The translations under genes and the position numbers were made by a program. From Lachnospiraceae oral taxon 107 str. F0167 (lineage in GTDB: Bacteria > Bacillota > Clostridia > Lachnospirales > Lachnospiraceae): a DNA stretch of 64,000 nucleotides. The notes beneath the pieces are model-generated. The model saw nothing but the letters and a program-made list of their open reading frames with translations. It did no database searches and was not told where the DNA came from. Shown here one piece after another: positions 1 to 12,688 of this stretch (positions are counted from its first letter, which is position 1; every line of letters starts with the position of its first letter). The stretch spans positions 75,058 to 139,057 of the forward strand of contig GL890586.1 in assembly GCA_000209465.1 (NCBI GenBank). The letters run 5' to 3'.

Positions 1-270
1 AGTAGAATCTATGACGCAGAGAAGAATTTTAGTCAGACTTTTGATAGTAGAATCTATGACGCAGAGAAGAATTTAAGCCAGACTTTTGATAGTAGAATCT
101 ATGACGCAGAGAAGAATTTAAGCCAGACTTTTGATAGTAGAATCTATGATGCAGAGAAGAATTTGAGCCAGACTTTTGATAGTAGAATCTATGATGCAGA
201 GAAGAATTTAAGCCAGACTTTTGATAGTAGAATCTATGACGCAGAGAAGAATTTAAGCCAATCTTTTGAC
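1..270 (+). repeat. 45-bp in-frame tandem repeat, at least six units
   Basis: Units begin at 1, 46, 91, 136, 181 and 226. Units 2 and 3 are identical and the others differ by a few mostly synonymous bases. Each unit encodes 15 residues, so gain or loss of units keeps the frame. The array runs off the left edge, so total copy number is unknown. Hydrophobic positions I3, A6, L10 and F14 recur with 3-4-4-4 spacing, a pentadecad pattern. Confidence 0.95.
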
Positions 271-954
271 AATAGAGTTTGGAAAGCGGAATTATACTTA
301 AAGAAAGAAATTTTAGCAAGAATTTGGTTGTTAAATAGAATGCTGGCTAATATTGAAAACTCTCAAAACCATAAAGATAAACTTTCCACCACATCTATAT
401 ATGGAGCAAATTTTTATGAAGATAATCAATATGGTTCGTTCATGTCTGCAATTGAAGTTTTAAAGTATTTGATACCCATATATAATCCGAGCAGTATAGT
501 AGATTTCGGATGTGGAACCGGGACATGGTTGGCAGCAGCTAAACAGATTAATAGGGATATACAGGTTACAGGAGTAGATGGTGATTATGTAGACCGAAAT
601 ATGTTAATGGTAAAAAAAGAGGAATTTTTAGCAAGAGATTTGACAGAAAATCTGGATTTACATAAGAAATTCGACATGGTAATTTCATTAGAGGTGGCTG
701 AGCATTTAAATGAAAAGTACGCAGATACTTTTATAGATACATTGTGCAGGCACTCAGATATCGTTTTGTTTTCTGCAGCTCATGTAGGTCAGGGAGGAGA
801 TGGCCATGTGAATGAGCAACCTATAAGTTATTGGGTAGAAAAGTTTGAAAAAAGAGGCTATATTTGGAATGATATAAGAAATGAATTTAAAGATAATTAC
901 AATATTGAACAATGGTATAAAGATAATATATCTATTTTTATAAAGAACCGGTAA
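1..954 (+). CDS. Repeat-coil SAM-dependent methyltransferase (5' partial)
   Basis: The reading frame is open from the first base, so the true start lies upstream. The first 270 bases are six near-identical 15-codon units (SRIYDAEKNLSQTFD type). A degenerate seventh unit (NRVWKAELYLKKEIL) keeps the same hydrophobic spacing, which predicts a long helical coil. After a linker comes a class I methyltransferase fold: motif I IVDFGCGTGTWLAAAKQ, the acidic motif II VTGVDGD, and FDMVISLEVAEHL. The C-terminus is intact. The substrate is not shown by the sequence. The neighbours are glycan genes, so a sugar or polysaccharide end is likely (inference). Internal TTG or ATG codons could be called as starts by software, but the repeats continue upstream of them. 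Confidence 0.85.
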   Translation, partial: SRIYDAEKNFSQTFDSRIYDAEKNLSQTFDSRIYDAEKNLSQTFDSRIYDAEKNLSQTFDSRIYDAEKNLSQTFDSRIYDAEKNLSQSFDNRVWKAELYLKKEILARIWLLNRMLANIENSQNHKDKLSTTSIYGANFYEDNQYGSFMSAIEVLKYLIPIYNPSSIVDFGCGTGTWLAAAKQINRDIQVTGVDGDYVDRNMLMVKKEEFLARDLTENLDLHKKFDMVISLEVAEHLNEKYADTFIDTLCRHSDIVLFSAAHVGQGGDGHVNEQPISYWVEKFEKRGYIWNDIRNEFKDNYNIEQWYKDNISIFIKNR

Positions 955-1391: not shown

Positions 1392-3470
1392 ATGACTTTT
1401 ATTTATAGTTTATTATTTGTTGTATTTACCTTCTTATATCTTTTTTTGATAAAAAAAGATATAAGAAGGTGGATCTATGCACCAATAATGGGAGGGGCCA
1501 CTGTAATATTTGTAATAATATTGAACCTATTTATTGTTTTTCCGGCAGATACTGTTACCATTAGAGCTTTGGATGAAAAAGATTCGTCTTCAGCTGCAAC
1601 ATATATTACTATGCAGAATATAACAGATAATAATGATACTGTTTTAAAGTATAGTGTTGTAGACGGGAAATGGTTAGATACCAATGGTGGACAGCGTTGG
1701 GGGGGAGTATCTGTTACAGGACTTACAGATACCATTACTATAAAATTACGAAAAGGCAATGATAGAAGTATAAACTTCCATGCCACAAGATGGGGAGGAA
1801 AGGCTGCCCTTAGTTTTAACGGTTCATCTGAAAAGGTACTATCTTCTTATGTTGATTCTGATAATGACAGTGTATCTATTCCTTTGCCCAATACAGGTGG
1901 AATTATAGGTTTTGGCATAATAAATATATTTGCTATTGTTTTGGAATGTATTATTTTAGGAATAGTTATATTTTGTCTATATATACACAGGATAAAGATT
2001 TTAAATTTAATTACAGAACACCAATATGAGTTGGTAGCAATAGTAATAGCATTAGTCGGATTCACAATTATGATTTCTTTGGGAAATTATAAATCAACAT
2101 GGATGGACGATTCGGCAACTATGGGGATAGCGGCAAAAAACAGAAGCCTGGGAGAAGTGATAGAGCTTATCCTTAGGGAGGAGTCAACAACACCACCTTT
2201 ATACACTGTTGCATGGCACTATTTTTCAAAGCTTATTCCTGTTGGAACAGGAGCTTTGGCATTGTGGGCCAGAATGTTGTCAATTATAGCAAATACTATC
2301 GGATTTTATGTTGGTGCTATGGTAGTAAGAAGAGGATGGAATAAATATGTTGGAATAATATTTGAGCTTTTTTTGATAACATCAAATGCTTTGATAGTAA
2401 ATTCGGGTTTTGCAGTTAGGTCATATGGTTTTATGATATTGATGCCTTTATTTTTGCTCTATGCTATTATTCTTCGCCTGGAAGATGGAAAAGAAAACAA
2501 AACTAAAACAACAGTAGTTCATATATCAGCAATTTTAGCCATATGTTATACACATTACTTTGGAATTCTCACTTGTTTTGGATTATTTTTGTATGAATGT
2601 TATTTGTTTATAAAGAAAAGATATTCATATAAATTTATATTTTCATATATGGTAGCAGGTGCCGTTTATTTGCCATGGCTTATTATAAATTATTTAATAA
2701 CAAGAGAACAGTGGGGTAATGCATTTTGGATTAGTCCACCCACCTTCGGAAGTATTATAGATATACTGAATTGGCTTGTATCATCTCAAGAATTTGCGAT
2801 TTTATGCGTAATGATTGGTTTTTTTGTTACAATTTATAGAGTCAGAGAAGCAAAGCTGTGTATTGATTTGAATTTAGCAATGATTATAACAATTATTGTT
2901 GAGATATTCATTGTGTTCTTTTACTCTAAGTATCTTAATCCAAAGTCATCTGTATGGACTAATAGATACTTCCTCAATTTATTGCCATATATGCTCATTA
3001 TAGCAAGTTTTGGTTTGGAAGAAATTATATCTTTCTTTACAAATGGAAGGATAAAAAGAATTGGATTTGTATATTTGGTAATGTCCTGCTTTATTTTTAT
3101 AAACAGTAATGTTACTTTATATACAAAAAGAGATATGGAATCAAGTTTTTATCAGCCATACAGAGAGGCTGCAGAATATCTGATAAATCAACCTGATGCA
3201 AACAGTCCGGATACATTAGTATTAATTAGTTCAACATATTCTATAGGGTGGGACTACTATTTGACACACAATGGTAAGTTTGAGCCTATAAAATATCAGA
3301 AAACATTTCAGGGGGATTTTGATAGAGAAAATATAAAGAAATATAAGAAGATATATTTGTTGGATATACATATACTGTTGAATGATGCAGATAGAATGGC
3401 TTTAGAGGAAAACTTTCATCAAATATATAAAGATGAAAAATCTACGGTCACAACATATATTCGTAACTAA
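1392..3470 (+). CDS. GT-C fold membrane glycosyltransferase (GT39/PMT_2-like)
   Basis: A 692-residue polytopic membrane protein. It has an N-terminal helix, an extracytoplasmic insert at roughly residues 50-170, then about ten hydrophobic segments. The first luminal loop has STWMDDSATMGIAAKNRSLG followed by ESTTPPLYTVAWHYF. This resembles the acidic motif and H/TPPLY stretch of lipid-sugar-dependent GT-C transferases (ArnT, PMT, RgtA-like). It probably moves a sugar from a polyprenyl-phosphate donor onto an acceptor outside the membrane. The GT2 and GtrA genes downstream could supply and flip that donor, as in GtrABC systems (inference). An AGAGG site precedes the ATG. A 20-bp inverted repeat lies inside codons 13-26. 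Confidence 0.7.
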   Translation: MTFIYSLLFVVFTFLYLFLIKKDIRRWIYAPIMGGATVIFVIILNLFIVFPADTVTIRALDEKDSSSAATYITMQNITDNNDTVLKYSVVDGKWLDTNGGQRWGGVSVTGLTDTITIKLRKGNDRSINFHATRWGGKAALSFNGSSEKVLSSYVDSDNDSVSIPLPNTGGIIGFGIINIFAIVLECIILGIVIFCLYIHRIKILNLITEHQYELVAIVIALVGFTIMISLGNYKSTWMDDSATMGIAAKNRSLGEVIELILREESTTPPLYTVAWHYFSKLIPVGTGALALWARMLSIIANTIGFYVGAMVVRRGWNKYVGIIFELFLITSNALIVNSGFAVRSYGFMILMPLFLLYAIILRLEDGKENKTKTTVVHISAILAICYTHYFGILTCFGLFLYECYLFIKKRYSYKFIFSYMVAGAVYLPWLIINYLITREQWGNAFWISPPTFGSIIDILNWLVSSQEFAILCVMIGFFVTIYRVREAKLCIDLNLAMIITIIVEIFIVFFYSKYLNPKSSVWTNRYFLNLLPYMLIIASFGLEEIISFFTNGRIKRIGFVYLVMSCFIFINSNVTLYTKRDMESSFYQPYREAAEYLINQPDANSPDTLVLISSTYSIGWDYYLTHNGKFEPIKYQKTFQGDFDRENIKKYKKIYLLDIHILLNDADRMALEENFHQIYKDEKSTVTTYIRN
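1428..1470 (+). repeat. Perfect 20-bp inverted repeat inside a coding start
   Basis: Arms 1428-1447 and 1451-1470 are exact reverse complements separated by GAT. The mRNA would form a very stable hairpin 36 bases after the start codon. Both arms are fully coding, and each includes a run of seven T or A. Confidence 0.9.
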
Positions 3471-3599: not shown

Positions 3600-3617
3600 A
3601 TGCAAAAAGATTTATGA
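3600..3617 (+). CDS. Five-codon leader reading frame (MQKDL)
   Basis: An ATG ten bases after GGAG opens a five-codon frame. Its TGA overlaps the hddA ATG as ATGA. It may couple ribosomes onto hddA, or it may simply be chance or a lost base. No function for the peptide is claimed. Confidence 0.3.
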   Translation: MQKDL

Positions 3618-4627
3618 TTATTGCACAGACACCATTTAGAATGTCATTTTTTGGCGGAGGGACAGATTATGAGGGATTTTATAAAGAACATGGAGGTGCT
3701 GTCATTTCAACTACTTTTGATAAGTATTGTTATACAACAGTGCGTCATCTCCCTAGATTCTTTGACTATTCCAATCAGATCACTTATGGGATAATTGAAA
3801 GAACAAAGACTATTGATGAGATACAGCACCCTGCTGTTAGGAATATCATGAAGTATTTAGATATGCATGAGCTCAGGGTAGTTTATGAAGCGGACCTTCC
3901 GGCAAGATCAGGGCTTGGTACCAGTTCTTCATTTGCAGTAGGTTTGTTAAATGCCTGTTATGCATTGAAGGGTAAATATGCAGATAAAAGAAGACTGGCA
4001 GATGATGCCATTTATGTTGAAAGAGTACTTTGTAATGAAGCAGGTGGTATTCAAGACCAAATAGCAGCTTCATTTGGAGGATTTAATAGAATTGATTTCA
4101 GAGATGATGGATATACGGTAAAACCGTTGGTATTTTCTACTGATAGAAAAAAAGACTTGAATGATAGGCTGATGCTGTTTTTTACAGGTTTTTCAAGATT
4201 TTCAAGTGATATTGCAAAAAATCAAGTAAAGGCGACAAAGGATAAGACTGCCGAGTTGCTGGAAATGAAGGCACTTGTGGATGAAGTACAGAAACTGCTT
4301 GTTTCGAAGGCTGATTTGAGAGAGTTTGGAAAGCTTCTTGATTATACTTGGAAATTAAAAAGAGGTATTACATCAGACATTAGTAATAACGACATAGATT
4401 TGTTATATAAAAAAGCAATAGATTCCGGAGCAACCGGAGGCAAGTTACTTGGTGCCGGTGGTGGTGGTTTCTTGTTGTTTTATGTAGAGCCTGAGTATCA
4501 AGAGAATGTAAAGAAAGCTCTTGAGGATCTGGTGTATGTTCCTTTTGAGTTTGAAAATGAGGGAACAAGAATTATGTATTTCAGACCTGAGTATTTTGAC
4601 TTGGAATCTGTTAAGGAAGGTTCATAG
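3614..4627 (+). CDS. hddA: GHMP kinase, D-glycero-D-manno-heptose 7-phosphate kinase
   Basis: 337 residues. The N-terminus MIIAQTPFRMSFFGGGTDY is typical of HddA. The phosphate-binding loop is LPARSGLGTSSSFAVG, and the C-terminal GHMP motif is GATGGKLLGAGGGGFLLFY. HddA phosphorylates D-glycero-alpha-D-manno-heptose 7-phosphate at C1 on the way to GDP-heptose. GmhA, which makes its substrate, is encoded at 9853. The GmhB phosphatase and HddC guanylyltransferase are not in the window. The best ribosome binding site (GGAG, 3586) is spaced for an ATG at 3600 that opens a five-codon reading frame overlapping this start, so translational coupling is possible. Confidence 0.85.
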   Translation: MIIAQTPFRMSFFGGGTDYEGFYKEHGGAVISTTFDKYCYTTVRHLPRFFDYSNQITYGIIERTKTIDEIQHPAVRNIMKYLDMHELRVVYEADLPARSGLGTSSSFAVGLLNACYALKGKYADKRRLADDAIYVERVLCNEAGGIQDQIAASFGGFNRIDFRDDGYTVKPLVFSTDRKKDLNDRLMLFFTGFSRFSSDIAKNQVKATKDKTAELLEMKALVDEVQKLLVSKADLREFGKLLDYTWKLKRGITSDISNNDIDLLYKKAIDSGATGGKLLGAGGGGFLLFYVEPEYQENVKKALEDLVYVPFEFENEGTRIMYFRPEYFDLESVKEGS

Positions 4628-7928: not shown

Positions 7929-8675
7929 GTGAAAGTTAAAGAATTTAAAAATGTATCAATTATTCTTCCAACCTTAAATGAATCTTTTTCATTTAATCAG
8001 ACGATTGATATTATCTTGGAAGAATGTAATCATGAGGATATCAAAGAGTTTATTGCAGTAGTATGTAATCGTACGTTGCCTGAAAGTATAGAAGCTATAA
8101 AAAAATCAAAATCGGTATGTGAAGAGGCCGGAATTCCATTACATATACTTTATCAAAAAAGACCATTTGCAGGAGGAGCTGTAGCAGACGGATTTTTGGA
8201 GGCAACAGGAAGTCACCTGCTTATGATGGCACCTGATTTGGAAACAGATCCACATAATGTAAAAGATTTTATTACTATGGGAAAGAAGTATCCAAGTGAT
8301 ATGATAACAGCTTCCAGATGGCTTAATAAGGGTAGTTTTGCAGGATATAGTAAAATAAAACTTGTTCTCAACTTTTTCTTTCAAAAAATGTTTGCTGTTT
8401 TTTATGGAGTAAAACTTACAGATATCACTTTTGGATATAGACTTGCACCTACTGAGTTGATGCAAAAAATTAAATGGGAAGAGTTAAAGCATCCGTTCTT
8501 TTTGGAAACAGCACTAAAGCCTATTCGTTTAAAGGTAAAGATACATGAAATACCTTCTAATTGGGCTGCCAGAGTAGAAGGAGAGTCACAGAATTCTTTA
8601 CTTCAAACTTTTAAATATTTAAAAATTGCTTTTAAAGTAAAATTTGAGAAGAAAAGTGAGTTGCTTAATGGTTAA
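7929..8675 (+). CDS. Family 2 glycosyltransferase (GtrB/DPM1-like)
   Basis: 248 residues with a GTG start and a GGAGG site. The GT-A fold begins VSIILPTLNES. The usual DxD position reads APDLETDP. No obvious C-terminal membrane pair is present. DPM1/GtrB-type enzymes load a hexose onto polyprenyl phosphate. The next gene is a GtrA flippase overlapping by eight bases, and a GT-C enzyme lies upstream, so the three could form a GtrABC-like lipid-linked sugar pathway (inference). Confidence 0.75.
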   Translation: MKVKEFKNVSIILPTLNESFSFNQTIDIILEECNHEDIKEFIAVVCNRTLPESIEAIKKSKSVCEEAGIPLHILYQKRPFAGGAVADGFLEATGSHLLMMAPDLETDPHNVKDFITMGKKYPSDMITASRWLNKGSFAGYSKIKLVLNFFFQKMFAVFYGVKLTDITFGYRLAPTELMQKIKWEELKHPFFLETALKPIRLKVKIHEIPSNWAARVEGESQNSLLQTFKYLKIAFKVKFEKKSELLNG

Positions 8676-9075
8676 GAATCTGTGGGAGAAATATAAAGAA
8701 TTATTCTTTTATGGTGTTTTTGGGGTGGGGGCTACGGTTATAAACGTAGCATCCTACCATATTTTGGAAAGAACAGTCGGTTTGCCATACTTAGTAGCTA
8801 ATATTATTGCTTGGATATTAGCTTTTATTTTTGCATTTATTACAAACAAACTGTTTGTATTTGAAAGCAGGAGCTGGGATAGAGCAGTAGCCATAAAAGA
8901 GTTTAGCGGTTTTTTGTCAGCCAGACTTTTAACAGGTGTATTAGATACTTTTTTAATGTGGTTTTTTGTAAGTATAATAAGATTGGATGATACATTATCT
9001 AAGATAATTATTAATATATTAGTGATAATAATAAACTATATTGCAAGTAAGTTTTTTATTTTCAAGAAGAAATAG
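8668..9075 (+). CDS. gtrA: GtrA family membrane protein
   Basis: About 135 residues with four hydrophobic segments. It has the N-terminal KYKELFFYGVFGVGATVIN and the Asn-Lys motif FAFITNKLFVFES of GtrA/DPMS flippases, and ends NYIASKFFIFKKK. I chose the ATG overlapping the previous stop over an in-frame TTG 24 bases upstream because it gives the usual family length. GtrA is thought to flip polyprenyl-phosphate sugars made by the adjacent GT2 enzyme. Confidence 0.85.
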   Translation: MVKNLWEKYKELFFYGVFGVGATVINVASYHILERTVGLPYLVANIIAWILAFIFAFITNKLFVFESRSWDRAVAIKEFSGFLSARLLTGVLDTFLMWFFVSIIRLDDTLSKIIINILVIIINYIASKFFIFKKK

Positions 9076-9499: not shown

Positions 9500-9875
9500 A
9501 TGAAGTCTAAATATTATGCAGTAAAGGGTATGTTTGCTATTTGCATAGCATGTATATATCATATTGCGACAATAGACTTTTTGTATACATTGACACCTCC
9601 TTTTGAGAATGTATGGTGAATTAAATATTTTTTTTCATTAAAACCATTACATTGTTTATGTGAAATTTTGTTTTATATTTACCTTATGAATTACAAAATA
9701 GAAGCGGCATTTTATTTATAGAATGAACATAATGCCATTTTATATTTTATATATTGTGATTCATATTTTTGTAGCATATGCTGTAAAAGTGGTTTTAAAT
9801 ATTATGGTGAAAAATATAAAAATATATAATAAGGTTGAATATATAGAGGAATATGATGATAGAGAGTATAATTAG
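9500..9875 (+). pseudogene. Decayed acyltransferase-like membrane protein
   Basis: Two fragments remain in the 359-base gap before gmhA. The first is a 39-codon frame containing AVKGMFAICIACIYHI, which resembles the N-terminal kGiaillVvlgHi stretch of membrane acyltransferases. The second (9732-9875) reads MPFYILYIVIHIFVAYAVKV and looks like a last membrane helix plus tail. The middle of the gene is missing. The second fragment overlaps the gmhA start by 23 bases. Family assignment is tentative. Confidence 0.4.
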
Positions 9876-10497
9876 AATATTAGATGAATTATTAGATAGA
9901 TATCCAAGTCTGGTTGAGCAAAGAGAAAGTATTATTGGAGTCTATAATGTTTTAGAGGAGTCCTATGCTAATGGTGGGAAATTGCTGGTTGCCGGAAACG
10001 GTGGTAGTGCAGCCGACTCTGAGCATATAGTTGGAGAGTTGATGAAAGCTTTTATTAAGCCAAGAAAACTTGATGAGAGTTTACAAAACAAACTTAAATC
10101 TATAGATGACAAGTTGGGACAAGTTTTAGCGGACAATTTGCAAGGTGCATTGCCGGCAATTGCCGTTACAGGTCATATTGGTCTTTCTACTGCATACTTG
10201 AATGACTGCAATCCGCTACTTTCATTTGCACAGCAGGTAAATGGATTTGGTAATGAAGGTGATGTGTTTCTTGGAATATCAACTTCAGGAAATTCCGAGA
10301 ACATACTATATGCTTTGGTGACAGCCAAGGCTAAGGGTATGAAAACGGTCGGATTATCCGGTAGAGATGGAGGAAAGATGCGAGAACTTTGTGATGCAAT
10401 TATTATAGCTCCCGAAACAGAGACATTTAAAATACAGGAACTTCATTTACCGATATATCATGCACTATGTTTGATGCTTGAGGCAAGATTTTTTTAG
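9853..10497 (+). CDS. gmhA: Phosphoheptose isomerase (SIS domain)
   Basis: 214 residues. SIS-domain motifs LLVAGNGGSAADSEHIVGEL and LGISTSGNSENILYAL are clear, with C-terminal TFKIQELHLPIYHALC as in GmhA. It converts sedoheptulose 7-phosphate to D-glycero-D-manno-heptose 7-phosphate, the HddA substrate. The AGAGGA site lies in the remnant of the previous gene. A terminator follows within 12 bases. Confidence 0.88.
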   Translation: MMIESIIRILDELLDRYPSLVEQRESIIGVYNVLEESYANGGKLLVAGNGGSAADSEHIVGELMKAFIKPRKLDESLQNKLKSIDDKLGQVLADNLQGALPAIAVTGHIGLSTAYLNDCNPLLSFAQQVNGFGNEGDVFLGISTSGNSENILYALVTAKAKGMKTVGLSGRDGGKMRELCDAIIIAPETETFKIQELHLPIYHALCLMLEARFF

Positions 10498-10813: not shown

Positions 10814-10849
10814 TGTCATTACGATGATTGATAGAATATGGAGAGCAAG

Positions 10850-11629
10850 ATGAAAACAGTTATATTAGCAGGCGGACTTGGAACCAGAATTTCCGAGGAA
10901 AGCCATTTGAAACCGAAGCCGATGATTGAAATCGGCAGTCAGCCTATATTATGGCATATTATGAAATACTATTCGACATTCGGAATAAATGAGTTCGTTA
11001 TACTTGCAGGTTATAAGCAGAATAAGATAAAAGAGTATTTTGCAAACTACTTTGTATACAATTCCGATGTAACTTTTGATATGAAAAATAATAAGATGGA
11101 AGTTCACAGAAGGAATGCGGAAGACTGGAAGGTAACAGTGCTTGATACAGGACTTAATACTATGACGGGTGGAAGAATACTGAGAGCAAAAGAGCATTTA
11201 CAGGATGAGCCTTTTATGCTTACATATGGTGACGGTGTATCGGATGTTGATGTAGACGGATTATTAAAATTTCACAAACAGCATGGGAAAACCGCTACAA
11301 TAACTACTGTAAGTCTTGCACAGCAAAAAGGTGTACTTCAAAAAGATGAGTCGGGACTTATCACATCATTCAGGGAAAAGAGTGAGGATGATTCAGCTAT
11401 TATAAATGGCGGTTTTATGGTGTTAAATCCTAATATTTTTGACTATATAACGGAGGGTGATGCCACTATATTTGAGCAAAGTCCTATGCTTAAACTTGCC
11501 GGTGACAAAGAGCTTATGGGCTTTGAACATGACGGCTTTTGGCAATGTATGGATACTCAAAGAGAGAAAGAAAAACTTGAGAGTCTTTGGGCAAGCGGCA
11601 AGGCTCCTTGGATGAGGTGGAATGAATAA
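10850..11629 (+). CDS. rfbF: Glucose-1-phosphate cytidylyltransferase
   Basis: 259 residues. The nucleotidyltransferase signature is MKTVILAGGLGTRISEES, then KPKPMIEIG, as in RfbF. The ATG here follows GGAG by eight bases and matches the family N-terminus; an ATG 12 bases upstream is in frame but overlaps that site. It makes CDP-glucose from CTP and glucose 1-phosphate, the first step toward CDP-3,6-dideoxyhexoses. The stop abuts the rfbG start (TAAATG). Confidence 0.92.
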   Translation: MKTVILAGGLGTRISEESHLKPKPMIEIGSQPILWHIMKYYSTFGINEFVILAGYKQNKIKEYFANYFVYNSDVTFDMKNNKMEVHRRNAEDWKVTVLDTGLNTMTGGRILRAKEHLQDEPFMLTYGDGVSDVDVDGLLKFHKQHGKTATITTVSLAQQKGVLQKDESGLITSFREKSEDDSAIINGGFMVLNPNIFDYITEGDATIFEQSPMLKLAGDKELMGFEHDGFWQCMDTQREKEKLESLWASGKAPWMRWNE

Positions 11630-12688
11630 ATGAATTTTGAGGAATTAAAAAAGTTTTATAGCGGTAAAAAGGTTCTTCTTACCGGACATACGGGCTTTAA
11701 GGGTACATGGCTTTCAAAAATACTTATAATGTGCGGTGCCAAATTGACAGGTTATGCTCTGAATCCTCCGACAGATACAAATATTTTTGATATTTTGGGT
11801 TTGGATGGAGAAATGAATTCCATCATAGGTGATATAAGAGATCTTAAATATTTGAAAAAAGTTTTTGATAAAGTTGAGCCTGAGTATGTTATTCATATGG
11901 CGGCACAGCCAATAGTAAGAGAATCCTATGAAAGACCTGTTTATACATATGAAACCAATGTTATGGGCACTGTAAATATAATGGAATGTGTGCGACTCTC
12001 AAAAAGTGTAAGAAGTTTTTTGAATGTCACAACAGATAAGGTTTATGATAATAAAGAACAGGCTGAGGGATATGTTGAAACGGATTTTTTAGATGGATAT
12101 GATCCATATTCAAACTCCAAGTCATGCTCGGAACTTGTTACCCACAGCTATAAAAAAAGCTTTTTGACTGATTTGCCGGTATCCTGTGCAAGAGCCGGAA
12201 ATGTAATAGGAGGCGGTGATTTTGCAAAGGACAGAATAGTTCCGGATTGTGTAAGAGCGGCAATATCAAAAAATTCTGTAATAATAAGAAACCCTAATTC
12301 TATAAGACCTTTCCAGCATGTTTTGGAACCGCTCTTTATTTATCTTGATATCATTATGAGGCAGGAAAAAGACAGGGGAAAATATGAGGGCTATTTTAAT
12401 GTGGGACCTGATGACAGTGATTGTGTAAATGCAAAAACACTGGTGGAGAGTTTTAAGAGAGCATGGGGAGACGGCTTTGAATTTAAGATTCAATCTGATG
12501 GAGGACCTCATGAAGCAGGATTTTTAAAGCTAAACTGCAATAAATTAAAATCGATATACGGCTGGAAACCGGGACTTAATGTACATGGAGCCATTGATTT
12601 GAGTGTTGAATGGTATAGAGCCTGGTATATGGGTGAAGATATGAATGAAATCACTGAAAAACAGATAAAATTTTATTTGGATAAATAA
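11630..12688 (+). CDS. rfbG: CDP-glucose 4,6-dehydratase
   Basis: 352 residues, extended SDR. The N-terminal motif is LLTGHTGFKGTWLSKIL, followed by VIHMAAQPIVRESYERP, the NVTTDKVYDN catalytic threonine stretch and YDPYSNSKSCSE (YxxxK). All are characteristic of RfbG. It converts CDP-glucose to CDP-4-dehydro-6-deoxyglucose. It sits between rfbF and rfbH with no gap upstream and 27 bases downstream. Confidence 0.93.
   Translation: MNFEELKKFYSGKKVLLTGHTGFKGTWLSKILIMCGAKLTGYALNPPTDTNIFDILGLDGEMNSIIGDIRDLKYLKKVFDKVEPEYVIHMAAQPIVRESYERPVYTYETNVMGTVNIMECVRLSKSVRSFLNVTTDKVYDNKEQAEGYVETDFLDGYDPYSNSKSCSELVTHSYKKSFLTDLPVSCARAGNVIGGGDFAKDRIVPDCVRAAISKNSVIIRNPNSIRPFQHVLEPLFIYLDIIMRQEKDRGKYEGYFNVGPDDSDCVNAKTLVESFKRAWGDGFEFKIQSDGGPHEAGFLKLNCNKLKSIYGWKPGLNVHGAIDLSVEWYRAWYMGEDMNEITEKQIKFYLDK

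What the first reader, a model, noticed from the sequence alone, without database searches (positions are those of the whole stretch)
1..400. Methyltransferase fused to an expandable 15-residue coiled coil: possible glycan-length ruler
Seen: six near-identical 45-bp in-frame repeats. The core residues I3, A6, L10, F14 recur with 3-4-4-4 spacing, and the two following degenerate units keep it (V, A, L, I; I, L, L). That is a pentadecad pattern, expected for a right-handed coiled coil. Established: in Escherichia coli O9a WbdD, a chain-terminating methyltransferase/kinase is spaced from the membrane by a coiled coil whose length sets polysaccharide chain length. Inference: this protein in a glycan locus could work the same way, with repeat copy number tuning chain length. 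Near-identity of units suggests recent slippage and strain variation.
Basis: partly seen in the sequence, partly recalled or inferred. Interest (0 to 1): 0.82.

Follow-up and report, generated by a model that had tools for sequence, protein, structure and literature searches.

The report
Sugar-chain ruler with variable repeats
An oral bacterium carries an enzyme that seems to fuse a sugar-chain builder to a chain-capping enzyme by a rod of near-identical 15-residue repeats, whose number differs widely between relatives and could set how long the surface sugar chain grows.

Summary
The repeat is real: six near-identical in-frame 45-bp units at window 1-270, a degenerate seventh, then a methyltransferase. 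The window starts just after a 354-N assembly gap inside the array. The gene (L004:10891-14012, genus Lachnoanaerobaculum) encodes an N-terminal GT2 glycosyltransferase, a linker, the repeat rod and a C-terminal methyltransferase, downstream of Wzm/Wzt exporter genes and two GT2 genes. Unit number is 4, 5, 5 and 16 in four relatives, at least 9 here. L. orale and a sister species share about 90% identical GT2 and rod DNA but carry different caps; identity collapses at the last unit. It resembles fused polymerase-ruler-terminator proteins of Gram-negative O antigens (WbbB, Klebsiella O7 ORF6), but with reversed domain order, in a Firmicute, and with a Wzt lacking the usual carbohydrate-binding domain. 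Ruler function, terminal methylation and strain variation are untested; AlphaFold made the rod helical at low confidence; the 3.75-residue periodicity was not significant by permutation. New variant of a known kind.

The parts
1..270 (+). six near-identical 45-bp units (SRIYDAEKNLSQTFD), the downstream part of the repeat rod; the array continues upstream of the window across an assembly gap
271..315 (+). seventh, degenerate unit NRVWKAELYLKKEIL, of a form that precedes this cap type in all three genus members that have it
316..363 (+). continuing stretch (ARIWLLNRMLANIENS) leading into the cap domain; its R-I-W is still in the 15-residue register
   Evidence: helix 92-121 of P0002, low confidence
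427..951 (+). class I SAM-dependent methyltransferase domain, the proposed chain cap (VDFGCGTG SAM motif at 499-522, read by eye)
1..954 (+). C-terminal 317 codons plus stop of the GT2-rod-methyltransferase gene; the gene begins outside the window at G000:C4:72890 (L004:10891)
3614..4627 (+). neighbour: sugar kinase closest to D-glycero-D-manno-heptose 7-phosphate kinase HddA, below that model's cut-off
9853..10497 (+). neighbour: GmhA-like phosphoheptose isomerase, below cut-off
10838..12688 (+). neighbours: glucose-1-phosphate cytidylyltransferase and CDP-glucose 4,6-dehydratase, both above cut-off

Best explanation
The gene encodes one protein that combines chain extension and chain capping. 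A GT2 glycosyltransferase at the N-terminus helps extend a lipid-linked surface polysaccharide at the cytoplasmic face of the membrane; a conserved amphipathic stretch after it is a candidate membrane contact. A rigid, probably oligomeric helical rod of 15-residue units holds the C-terminal methyltransferase away from the extension site. Only a chain long enough to span the rod can place its non-reducing end in the methyltransferase, where methylation caps it; the chain is then exported by Wzm/Wzt. Unit number would set the modal chain length: at 0.15 nm per residue, about 9 nm for 4 units and 36 nm for 16. Shown here: domain architecture, genomic context, 15-residue register, variable unit number, and two cap types on one kind of GT2 and rod. 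Inferred: membrane contact, oligomeric state, terminal methylation, and length control.
For: The GT2 (PF00535, E 6.4e-28, with a DAD motif read in the sequence) and the methyltransferase (PF13489, E 2.5e-9) lie at opposite ends of the rod. Wzm and Wzt genes lie upstream, followed by two more GT2 genes. The complete gene is read in one frame in L. orale, L. saburreum, G001 and G005 (domains). Successive units are 15 residues apart throughout the arrays (position list), E7 is kept in 45 of 45, and nonpolar residues keep to positions 3, 4, 6, 10, 14, while unit number runs 4, 5, 5, 7, 16 and at least 9. 38 of 46 units fit a relaxed R-h-x-x-h-E pattern allowing Ala, akin to the trimer motif described in PMC3653964 (passages); WbdD is a trimer (PMC3482155, passages). 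Two different caps occur on nearly the same GT2 and rod. Published proteins with a coiled coil between extension and termination modules control chain length (PMC11231755, passages).
Against: No chain-length, methylation or glycan-structure data were found for this organism. The Wzt is 247 aa with no carbohydrate-binding domain in Pfam, whereas such terminators typically come with one (PMC11127046, passages). The full-length model was poor (mean pLDDT 38.1) and the window model put the rod in helix only at block-mean pLDDT 33-53. The 3.75-residue periodicity is not significant by permutation. By the published strict definition of the trimer motif (Leu, Ile or Val at the second h), almost all units fail because they have Ala, Ser or Thr there. 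R2 and positions 3-4 are part of the search pattern, so their constancy is partly built in. The gap leaves the window's own gene unread in the middle, with a 1-bp frame break at its edge. The architecture was found in few genomes (5 of 397 with any linker match; 2 of 381 with a rod match). WsaE, a Gram-positive methyltransferase-GT fusion, methylated independently of chain length in vitro (PMC2943079, passages).
Confidence: 0.6

Rival explanations
1. The rod is only an oligomerisation spacer that clusters GT2 and methyltransferase. Methylation decorates sugars inside the chain, and unit number drifts by slippage with no effect on chain length.
For: Near-identical 45-bp units expand easily (general knowledge). 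Within-species unit identity exceeds between-species identity for the window and L. saburreum arrays (0.88 and 0.81 against 0.74 between them), a sign of lineage-specific turnover. Wzt has no carbohydrate-binding domain.
Against: The 15-residue register and E7 are kept in the 45 tandem units compared, so structure is constrained even if length is not. GT2 and cap stay at opposite ends in the four genus members read in one frame and, across the gap, in the window's genome.
Confidence: 0.25
2. The repeats are a membrane- or lipid-binding amphipathic array, like apolipoprotein or perilipin repeats, that attaches the enzyme along the membrane instead of standing off from it.
For: Repetitive amphipathic helices can bind membranes (general knowledge); a sub-threshold Apolipoprotein match (E 0.0063, 16.7 bits against a cut-off of 90) appears in the L. 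saburreum protein.
Against: That match covers residues 473-580, mostly before the array, which starts at 572. The nonpolar stripe is narrow (five of 15 positions) with R and E beside it, more typical of a coil core (inference).
Confidence: 0.08
3. The gene is broken in the window's genome or the array is an assembly product: the 1-bp frame break beside the gap is real and the upstream and downstream halves are not one protein.
For: The last full upstream unit is one base short and 354 Ns follow. The last 24 bases before the gap match the first 24 after it with one mismatch.
Against: The same GT2-rod-methyltransferase order is one open frame in four relatives. The break sits at the edge of an unresolved repeat, where consensus errors are expected (inference).
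Confidence: 0.07

Closest known systems
WbbB of Klebsiella pneumoniae O12 (single-protein polymerase and terminator)
   Same: Polymerising GT modules and a terminating enzyme in one polypeptide with a coiled-coil ruler; ABC-transporter pathway (as described in passages of PMC11231755; the original paper is not held).
   Different: The terminator is an N-terminal Kdo transferase and two polymerising GTs are C-terminal; here GT2 is N-terminal and the cap is a C-terminal methyltransferase.
ORF6 of K. pneumoniae O7
   Same: Methyltransferase, coiled coil and GT2 modules in one protein (PMC11231755, passages).
   Different: Order is methyltransferase-kinase-CBM (predicted)-coil-GT2-GT2, the reverse of this one; Gram-negative; no tandem near-identical rod units are mentioned in the passages seen.
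WbdD of Escherichia coli O9a
   Same: Capping methyltransferase at the distal end of a coil whose length determines chain length; trimer (PMC11231755, PMC3482155, passages).
   Different: Polymerase WbdA is a separate recruited protein; WbdD has a kinase; no WbdD chain was listed among sequence matches of the window methyltransferase.
WsaE of Geobacillus stearothermophilus
   Same: Gram-positive fusion of an O-methyltransferase with GT domains, in a Wzm/Wzt cluster, proposed to cap S-layer glycan (PMC2943079, passages).
   Different: Methyltransferase is N-terminal with two GT domains; the word 'coiled' does not occur in that review; its methylation was chain-length independent in vitro.

Membership tests
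Coiled-coil polymerase-terminator systems (WbdD/WbbB/O7 type) | ABC-transporter (Wzm/Wzt) export genes in the same cluster | tested here: met
   L004:7287-8066 (PF01061; best NCBIfam galactan Wzm, below cut-off) and L004:8079-8822 (PF00005; Wzt/TagH-like, below cut-off):
Coiled-coil polymerase-terminator systems (WbdD/WbbB/O7 type) | Terminating enzyme and polymerising GT at opposite ends of the coil | tested here: met
   GT2 at 125-251 of P0001, methyltransferase at 156-238 of P0002, rod between; same in L. orale and L. saburreum. That the GT2 polymerises and the methyltransferase terminates is inferred
Coiled-coil polymerase-terminator systems (WbdD/WbbB/O7 type) | Extended coiled coil | tested here: inconclusive
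   15-residue register kept; helix predicted at low confidence; periodicity permutation 2272 of 20000
Coiled-coil polymerase-terminator systems (WbdD/WbbB/O7 type) | C-terminal carbohydrate-binding module on Wzt ('typically' present, PMC11127046) | tested here: not met
   Wzt is 247 aa and its Pfam matches are ATPase models only; so it is not filed as a member, only as working like one
Coiled-coil polymerase-terminator systems (WbdD/WbbB/O7 type) | Non-reducing-end modification and coil length controlling chain length | not testable with these tools
   needs glycan chemistry
Coiled-coil polymerase-terminator systems (WbdD/WbbB/O7 type) | Cap enzyme homologous to WbdD | tested here: inconclusive
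   No WbdD chain listed by phmmer or profile search or in the 50 structural rows shown; absence from these lists does not exclude it
WsaE-type S-layer glycan enzyme | N-terminal methyltransferase followed by two GT domains | tested here: not met
   Order here is GT2, rod, methyltransferase
Right-handed pentadecad coiled coils | 15-residue repeats with 3-4-4-4 core spacing | tested here: met
   (spacing and residue classes; the periodicity itself was not significant by permutation)
Right-handed pentadecad coiled coils | Right-handed supercoil in a structure | not testable with these tools
   no multimer prediction available; monomer models are low confidence

The most novel reading that the evidence does not exclude
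In these Firmicutes the ruler is a genetically adjustable dial: a 45-bp minisatellite whose slippage changes surface-glycan length in 15-residue steps, and whose repeats also serve as the crossover site at which different caps are exchanged, so length and end-group evolve independently.
Probability: 0.33. Interest if true: 0.8.

Novelty: new variant of a known kind. Interest (0 to 1): 0.62.

Why it matters
Ruler control of glycan length is established in a few Gram-negative O-antigen systems (PMC11231755, passages), by altering the rod in the laboratory as I recall. Here related species already carry natural rods of 4 to 16 units on one kind of enzyme, and two different caps on nearly the same enzyme. 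Measuring glycan lengths in strains that can be cultured would test the ruler model with natural variants and extend it to a Gram-positive genus. A quantised, slippage-prone ruler would also be a new way for surface sugar length to vary.

Tried and rejected
AlphaFold of the whole L. orale protein with a three-sequence alignment gave mean pLDDT 38.1 and was not used beyond noting helices; no fold search was run on it. The window model's methyltransferase part gave many tied class I methyltransferase matches (best 6uk5_A, CalS10, an amino pentose methyltransferase, Z 13.2, rmsd 2.8, 149 aligned; sugar N-methyltransferases TylM1 and DesVI lie among plant and antibiotic O-methyltransferases). This fixes the fold, not the substrate, and WbdD is not among the 50 rows shown. 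The rod alone has no convincing PDB sequence match (best 4lin tail needle protein, E 0.028).

A hydrophobic-periodicity test of each array looked good as a spectrum (peaks 3.71-3.76 in five of five), but a permutation control within the unit showed 232 to 452 of 2000 permutations as strong and 2272 of 20000 for the six-species mean, so it is not used as proof. A repeated 15-mer can only peak near 15/k.

The family-wide linker search found 5 of 397 genomes with a match: the window's, G001, and G021, G287 and G199; that sample did not list L. orale, L. saburreum or G005, which the genus search covers. The G199 match falls in a helicase-like ORF and looks like chance (by eye). G021 has GT2 proteins with one rod-like unit and no cap in the same ORF. 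The rod search found 2 of 381 class genomes. Methyltransferase searches of 397 family genomes gave 26 and 40 matches. Of all these loci I read ORFs at 11 (nine, two): L063 and L106 returned a wrong-frame ORF and tell nothing; L015 is the G287 gene; L060 and L082 hold a methyltransferase with a coil-like stretch but no GT2 seen by eye; none of the rest showed GT2, rod and methyltransferase together. The other matches were not read. G578, with two GT2-like domains by eye, seven units and the start of this cap, is a 3081-base contig of an 85%-complete bin with 4% contamination, cut off at the contig end, and the other 8 of 9 genomes searched in its family have no match; mis-binning cannot be excluded.

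Literature: 'Eubacterium saburreum' with 'heptose' gave 0 papers; Lachnoanaerobaculum with polysaccharide and ABC transporter gave 5, none on this topic by title and abstract start; two searches for a repeat rod or Firmicute ruler gave 0. The original WbdD-ruler and WbbB papers are not held; they are known here only through other papers. All papers cited were seen as passages only.

Full report
What is there. Window 1-270 holds six tandem 45-bp units in one frame (TRF: 1-276, 6.1 copies, 95% matches; lag-45 identity 216 of 225 against 93 of 225 for the best place after position 400). They encode SRIYDAEKNLSQTFD with few changes, followed by the degenerate unit NRVWKAELYLKKEIL and a class I methyltransferase; the gene ends at 954.

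The window edge hides half of the gene. The window is G000:C4:75058-139057. The stretch before it (L004) shows that the window begins immediately after 354 Ns (L004:12705-13058) that lie inside the array. Before the Ns come two units and part of a third; the second is one base shorter than the others, so the frame breaks at the gap edge. The gene starts at L004:10891, and the part before the frame break encodes a GT2 glycosyltransferase domain (PF00535, residues 125-251, E 6.4e-28), then a linker and the first rod units. I treat the gap as an unresolved repeat and the missing base as a probable edge error, which is inference; four relatives have the same order in one open frame with no X in the protein.

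How many units. Counting R-[IVLMT]-[YWF]-x-x-[E/K] at exact 15-residue spacing: L. orale 5, L. saburreum DSM 3986 16, G001 5, G005 4, and in the window's genome 2 before the gap plus 7 after it, so at least 9. The looser listing (R-[IVT]-[YWF] only) shows the same positions and an eighth in-register R-I-W after the gap. If the nominal gap length were right the array would be about 17 units (arithmetic from the coordinates), but gap sizes are estimates. G578, from another family of the class, has 7 before its contig ends. L. orale and L. saburreum are named through the contigs, whose lengths equal those of G002 and G003. The gene is in 5 of the 6 genomes of the genus searched; G004's best match is a remote 273-aa GT2 frame.

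Unit evolution. In pairwise DNA comparison of 33 units (the last unit of each array, the truncated upstream unit of the window and G578 were left out), mean identity within the window array is 0.88, within L. saburreum 0.81, between these two 0.74. L. saburreum also has 90-bp and 180-bp higher-order repeats. L. orale units are no more alike to each other (0.72) than to those of G001 (0.78), so its array, shared with G001, is older. Arrays have therefore probably expanded separately in at least two lineages. Over 45 units E7 never changes, and neither does R2, which however is required by the search pattern; nonpolar fractions averaged over six species are 0.97, 1.00, 0.85, 1.00 and 0.88 at positions 3, 4, 6, 10 and 14, of which 3 and 4 are also in the pattern.

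Is it a right-handed coiled coil? The 3-4-4-4 spacing (15/4 = 3.75 residues per turn) is what a pentadecad rod needs, and a relaxed R-h-x-x-h-E pattern, a trimer determinant in its strict form (PMC3653964, passages), fits 38 of 46 units when Ala is allowed at the second h; by the strict definition nearly all fail. AlphaFold with three sequences made residues 2-85 and 92-121 of the window protein helical at block-mean pLDDT 33-53. Permutation controls of periodicity were not significant (232 to 452 of 2000 per species; 2272 of 20000 for the mean). So helical rod: likely; right-handed and oligomeric: plausible, unproven.

The cap is swappable. In the window species, L. orale and L. saburreum the methyltransferase is one type (77-80% identical protein). 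G001 and G005 carry another class I methyltransferase, only 27-29% identical over about 150 residues to the first. G001 and L. orale are 91.5% identical in DNA before the rod; in 60-column steps identity is 0.85 at gene nucleotide 1781, 0.48 at 1841 and then 0.18-0.55 to the end of the L. orale gene, and it returns to 0.93 where the downstream sugar kinase gene begins. At this resolution the break falls at the fifth and last unit, which starts at codon 616, nucleotide 1846. The last unit goes with the cap type: RVWK[AS]ELYLK in the three proteins with the first cap, RIWKAE[SNC]N[IL] in G001, G005 and G287 with the second. I read this as module exchange through the repeat, which is inference from one clean pair.

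GT modules also vary. In one search the L. orale query residues 10-512 match G005 from about residue 230 on, that is, after a first GT2 domain at 9-168 (one search finds two GT2 stretches in the 1129-aa G005 protein). The single-GT2 form therefore probably lost one GT2 but kept the region behind it. G287, another genus of the family, has two GT2 domains, single rod-like units, a middle region with a weak sub-cut-off match to a surface carbohydrate protein, and the second cap type (54% identical), in 1466 aa.

Context. Upstream are Wzm (L004:7287-8066) and Wzt (8079-8822), two GT2 genes, an acyltransferase-family membrane protein, and HddA- and GmhA-like genes; downstream are HddA- and GmhA-like genes again, glucose-1-phosphate cytidylyltransferase and CDP-glucose 4,6-dehydratase. 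The last two pass their curated cut-offs; the heptose genes do not. A heptose-containing surface glycan is a reasonable guess. I recall that old chemical work described heptose-rich polysaccharides from Eubacterium saburreum, the former name of L. saburreum, but no call confirmed it (one search found no paper).

Mechanism and comparison. PMC11231755 (passages) describes proteins in which a coiled coil separates polymerising from terminating modules so that only chains of a minimum length are capped: WbdD, WbbB, and ORF6 of Klebsiella O7 (methyltransferase, kinase, predicted CBM, coil, two GT2). The present protein has the same logic with inverted order. A conserved amphipathic stretch (winN residues 459-476, L. 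orale 458-475, G005 687-704) is among the six highest hydrophobic-moment segments listed for each of the five genus proteins and lies between GT2 and rod, where a membrane contact would put the cap at the far end; that is inference. Differences from the known systems are the Firmicute host, the domain order, the tandem near-identical units, and a Wzt without a C-terminal binding module, which PMC11127046 says such terminators typically have (passages). I therefore say it works like them, not that it belongs to them. In Gram-positives the nearest I found is WsaE, an O-methyltransferase-GT fusion proposed to cap S-layer glycan, whose methylation did not depend on length in vitro (PMC2943079, passages).

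Verdict. The key functional step, length control by the rod, is untested. Two paper searches aimed at a repeat-built or Firmicute ruler returned nothing, in an open-access library only.

Noticed in passing
window 1428-1470: A near-perfect inverted repeat (arms of about 19 bases) lies near the start of the next ORF (1392-3470, a membrane protein by eye, without a Pfam match); it showed up as a minus-strand self-match of 43 bases at 93%.
   Followed up: no
L004:8815-9615 (G000:C4:70814-71614): This GT2 gene is 266 aa in the window's genome but 359 aa in L. orale, L. saburreum, G001 and G005; the C-terminal tail seems lost or frame-broken.
   Followed up: no
L025:7450-11850 (G287): A 1466-aa protein of another genus strings two GT2 domains, an uncharacterised middle region and the second cap type together, with single RIWKAE units at the joints.
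   Followed up: partly
L113 (G578:C348): A 3081-base contig from another family carries two GT2-like domains, seven RIW[QK]AE units and the start of the window-type cap (by eye); either a wider spread or a mis-binned contig.
   Followed up: partly
window 1392-3470 and L004:5603-7276: Two membrane proteins of different type carry similar-looking N-terminal extracytoplasmic segments by eye; no call compared them. Possibly a shared surface-glycan domain.
   Followed up: no
L004:12597-12704: The second unit before the N gap is one base shorter than the other units, so the frame breaks at the gap edge.
   Followed up: partly
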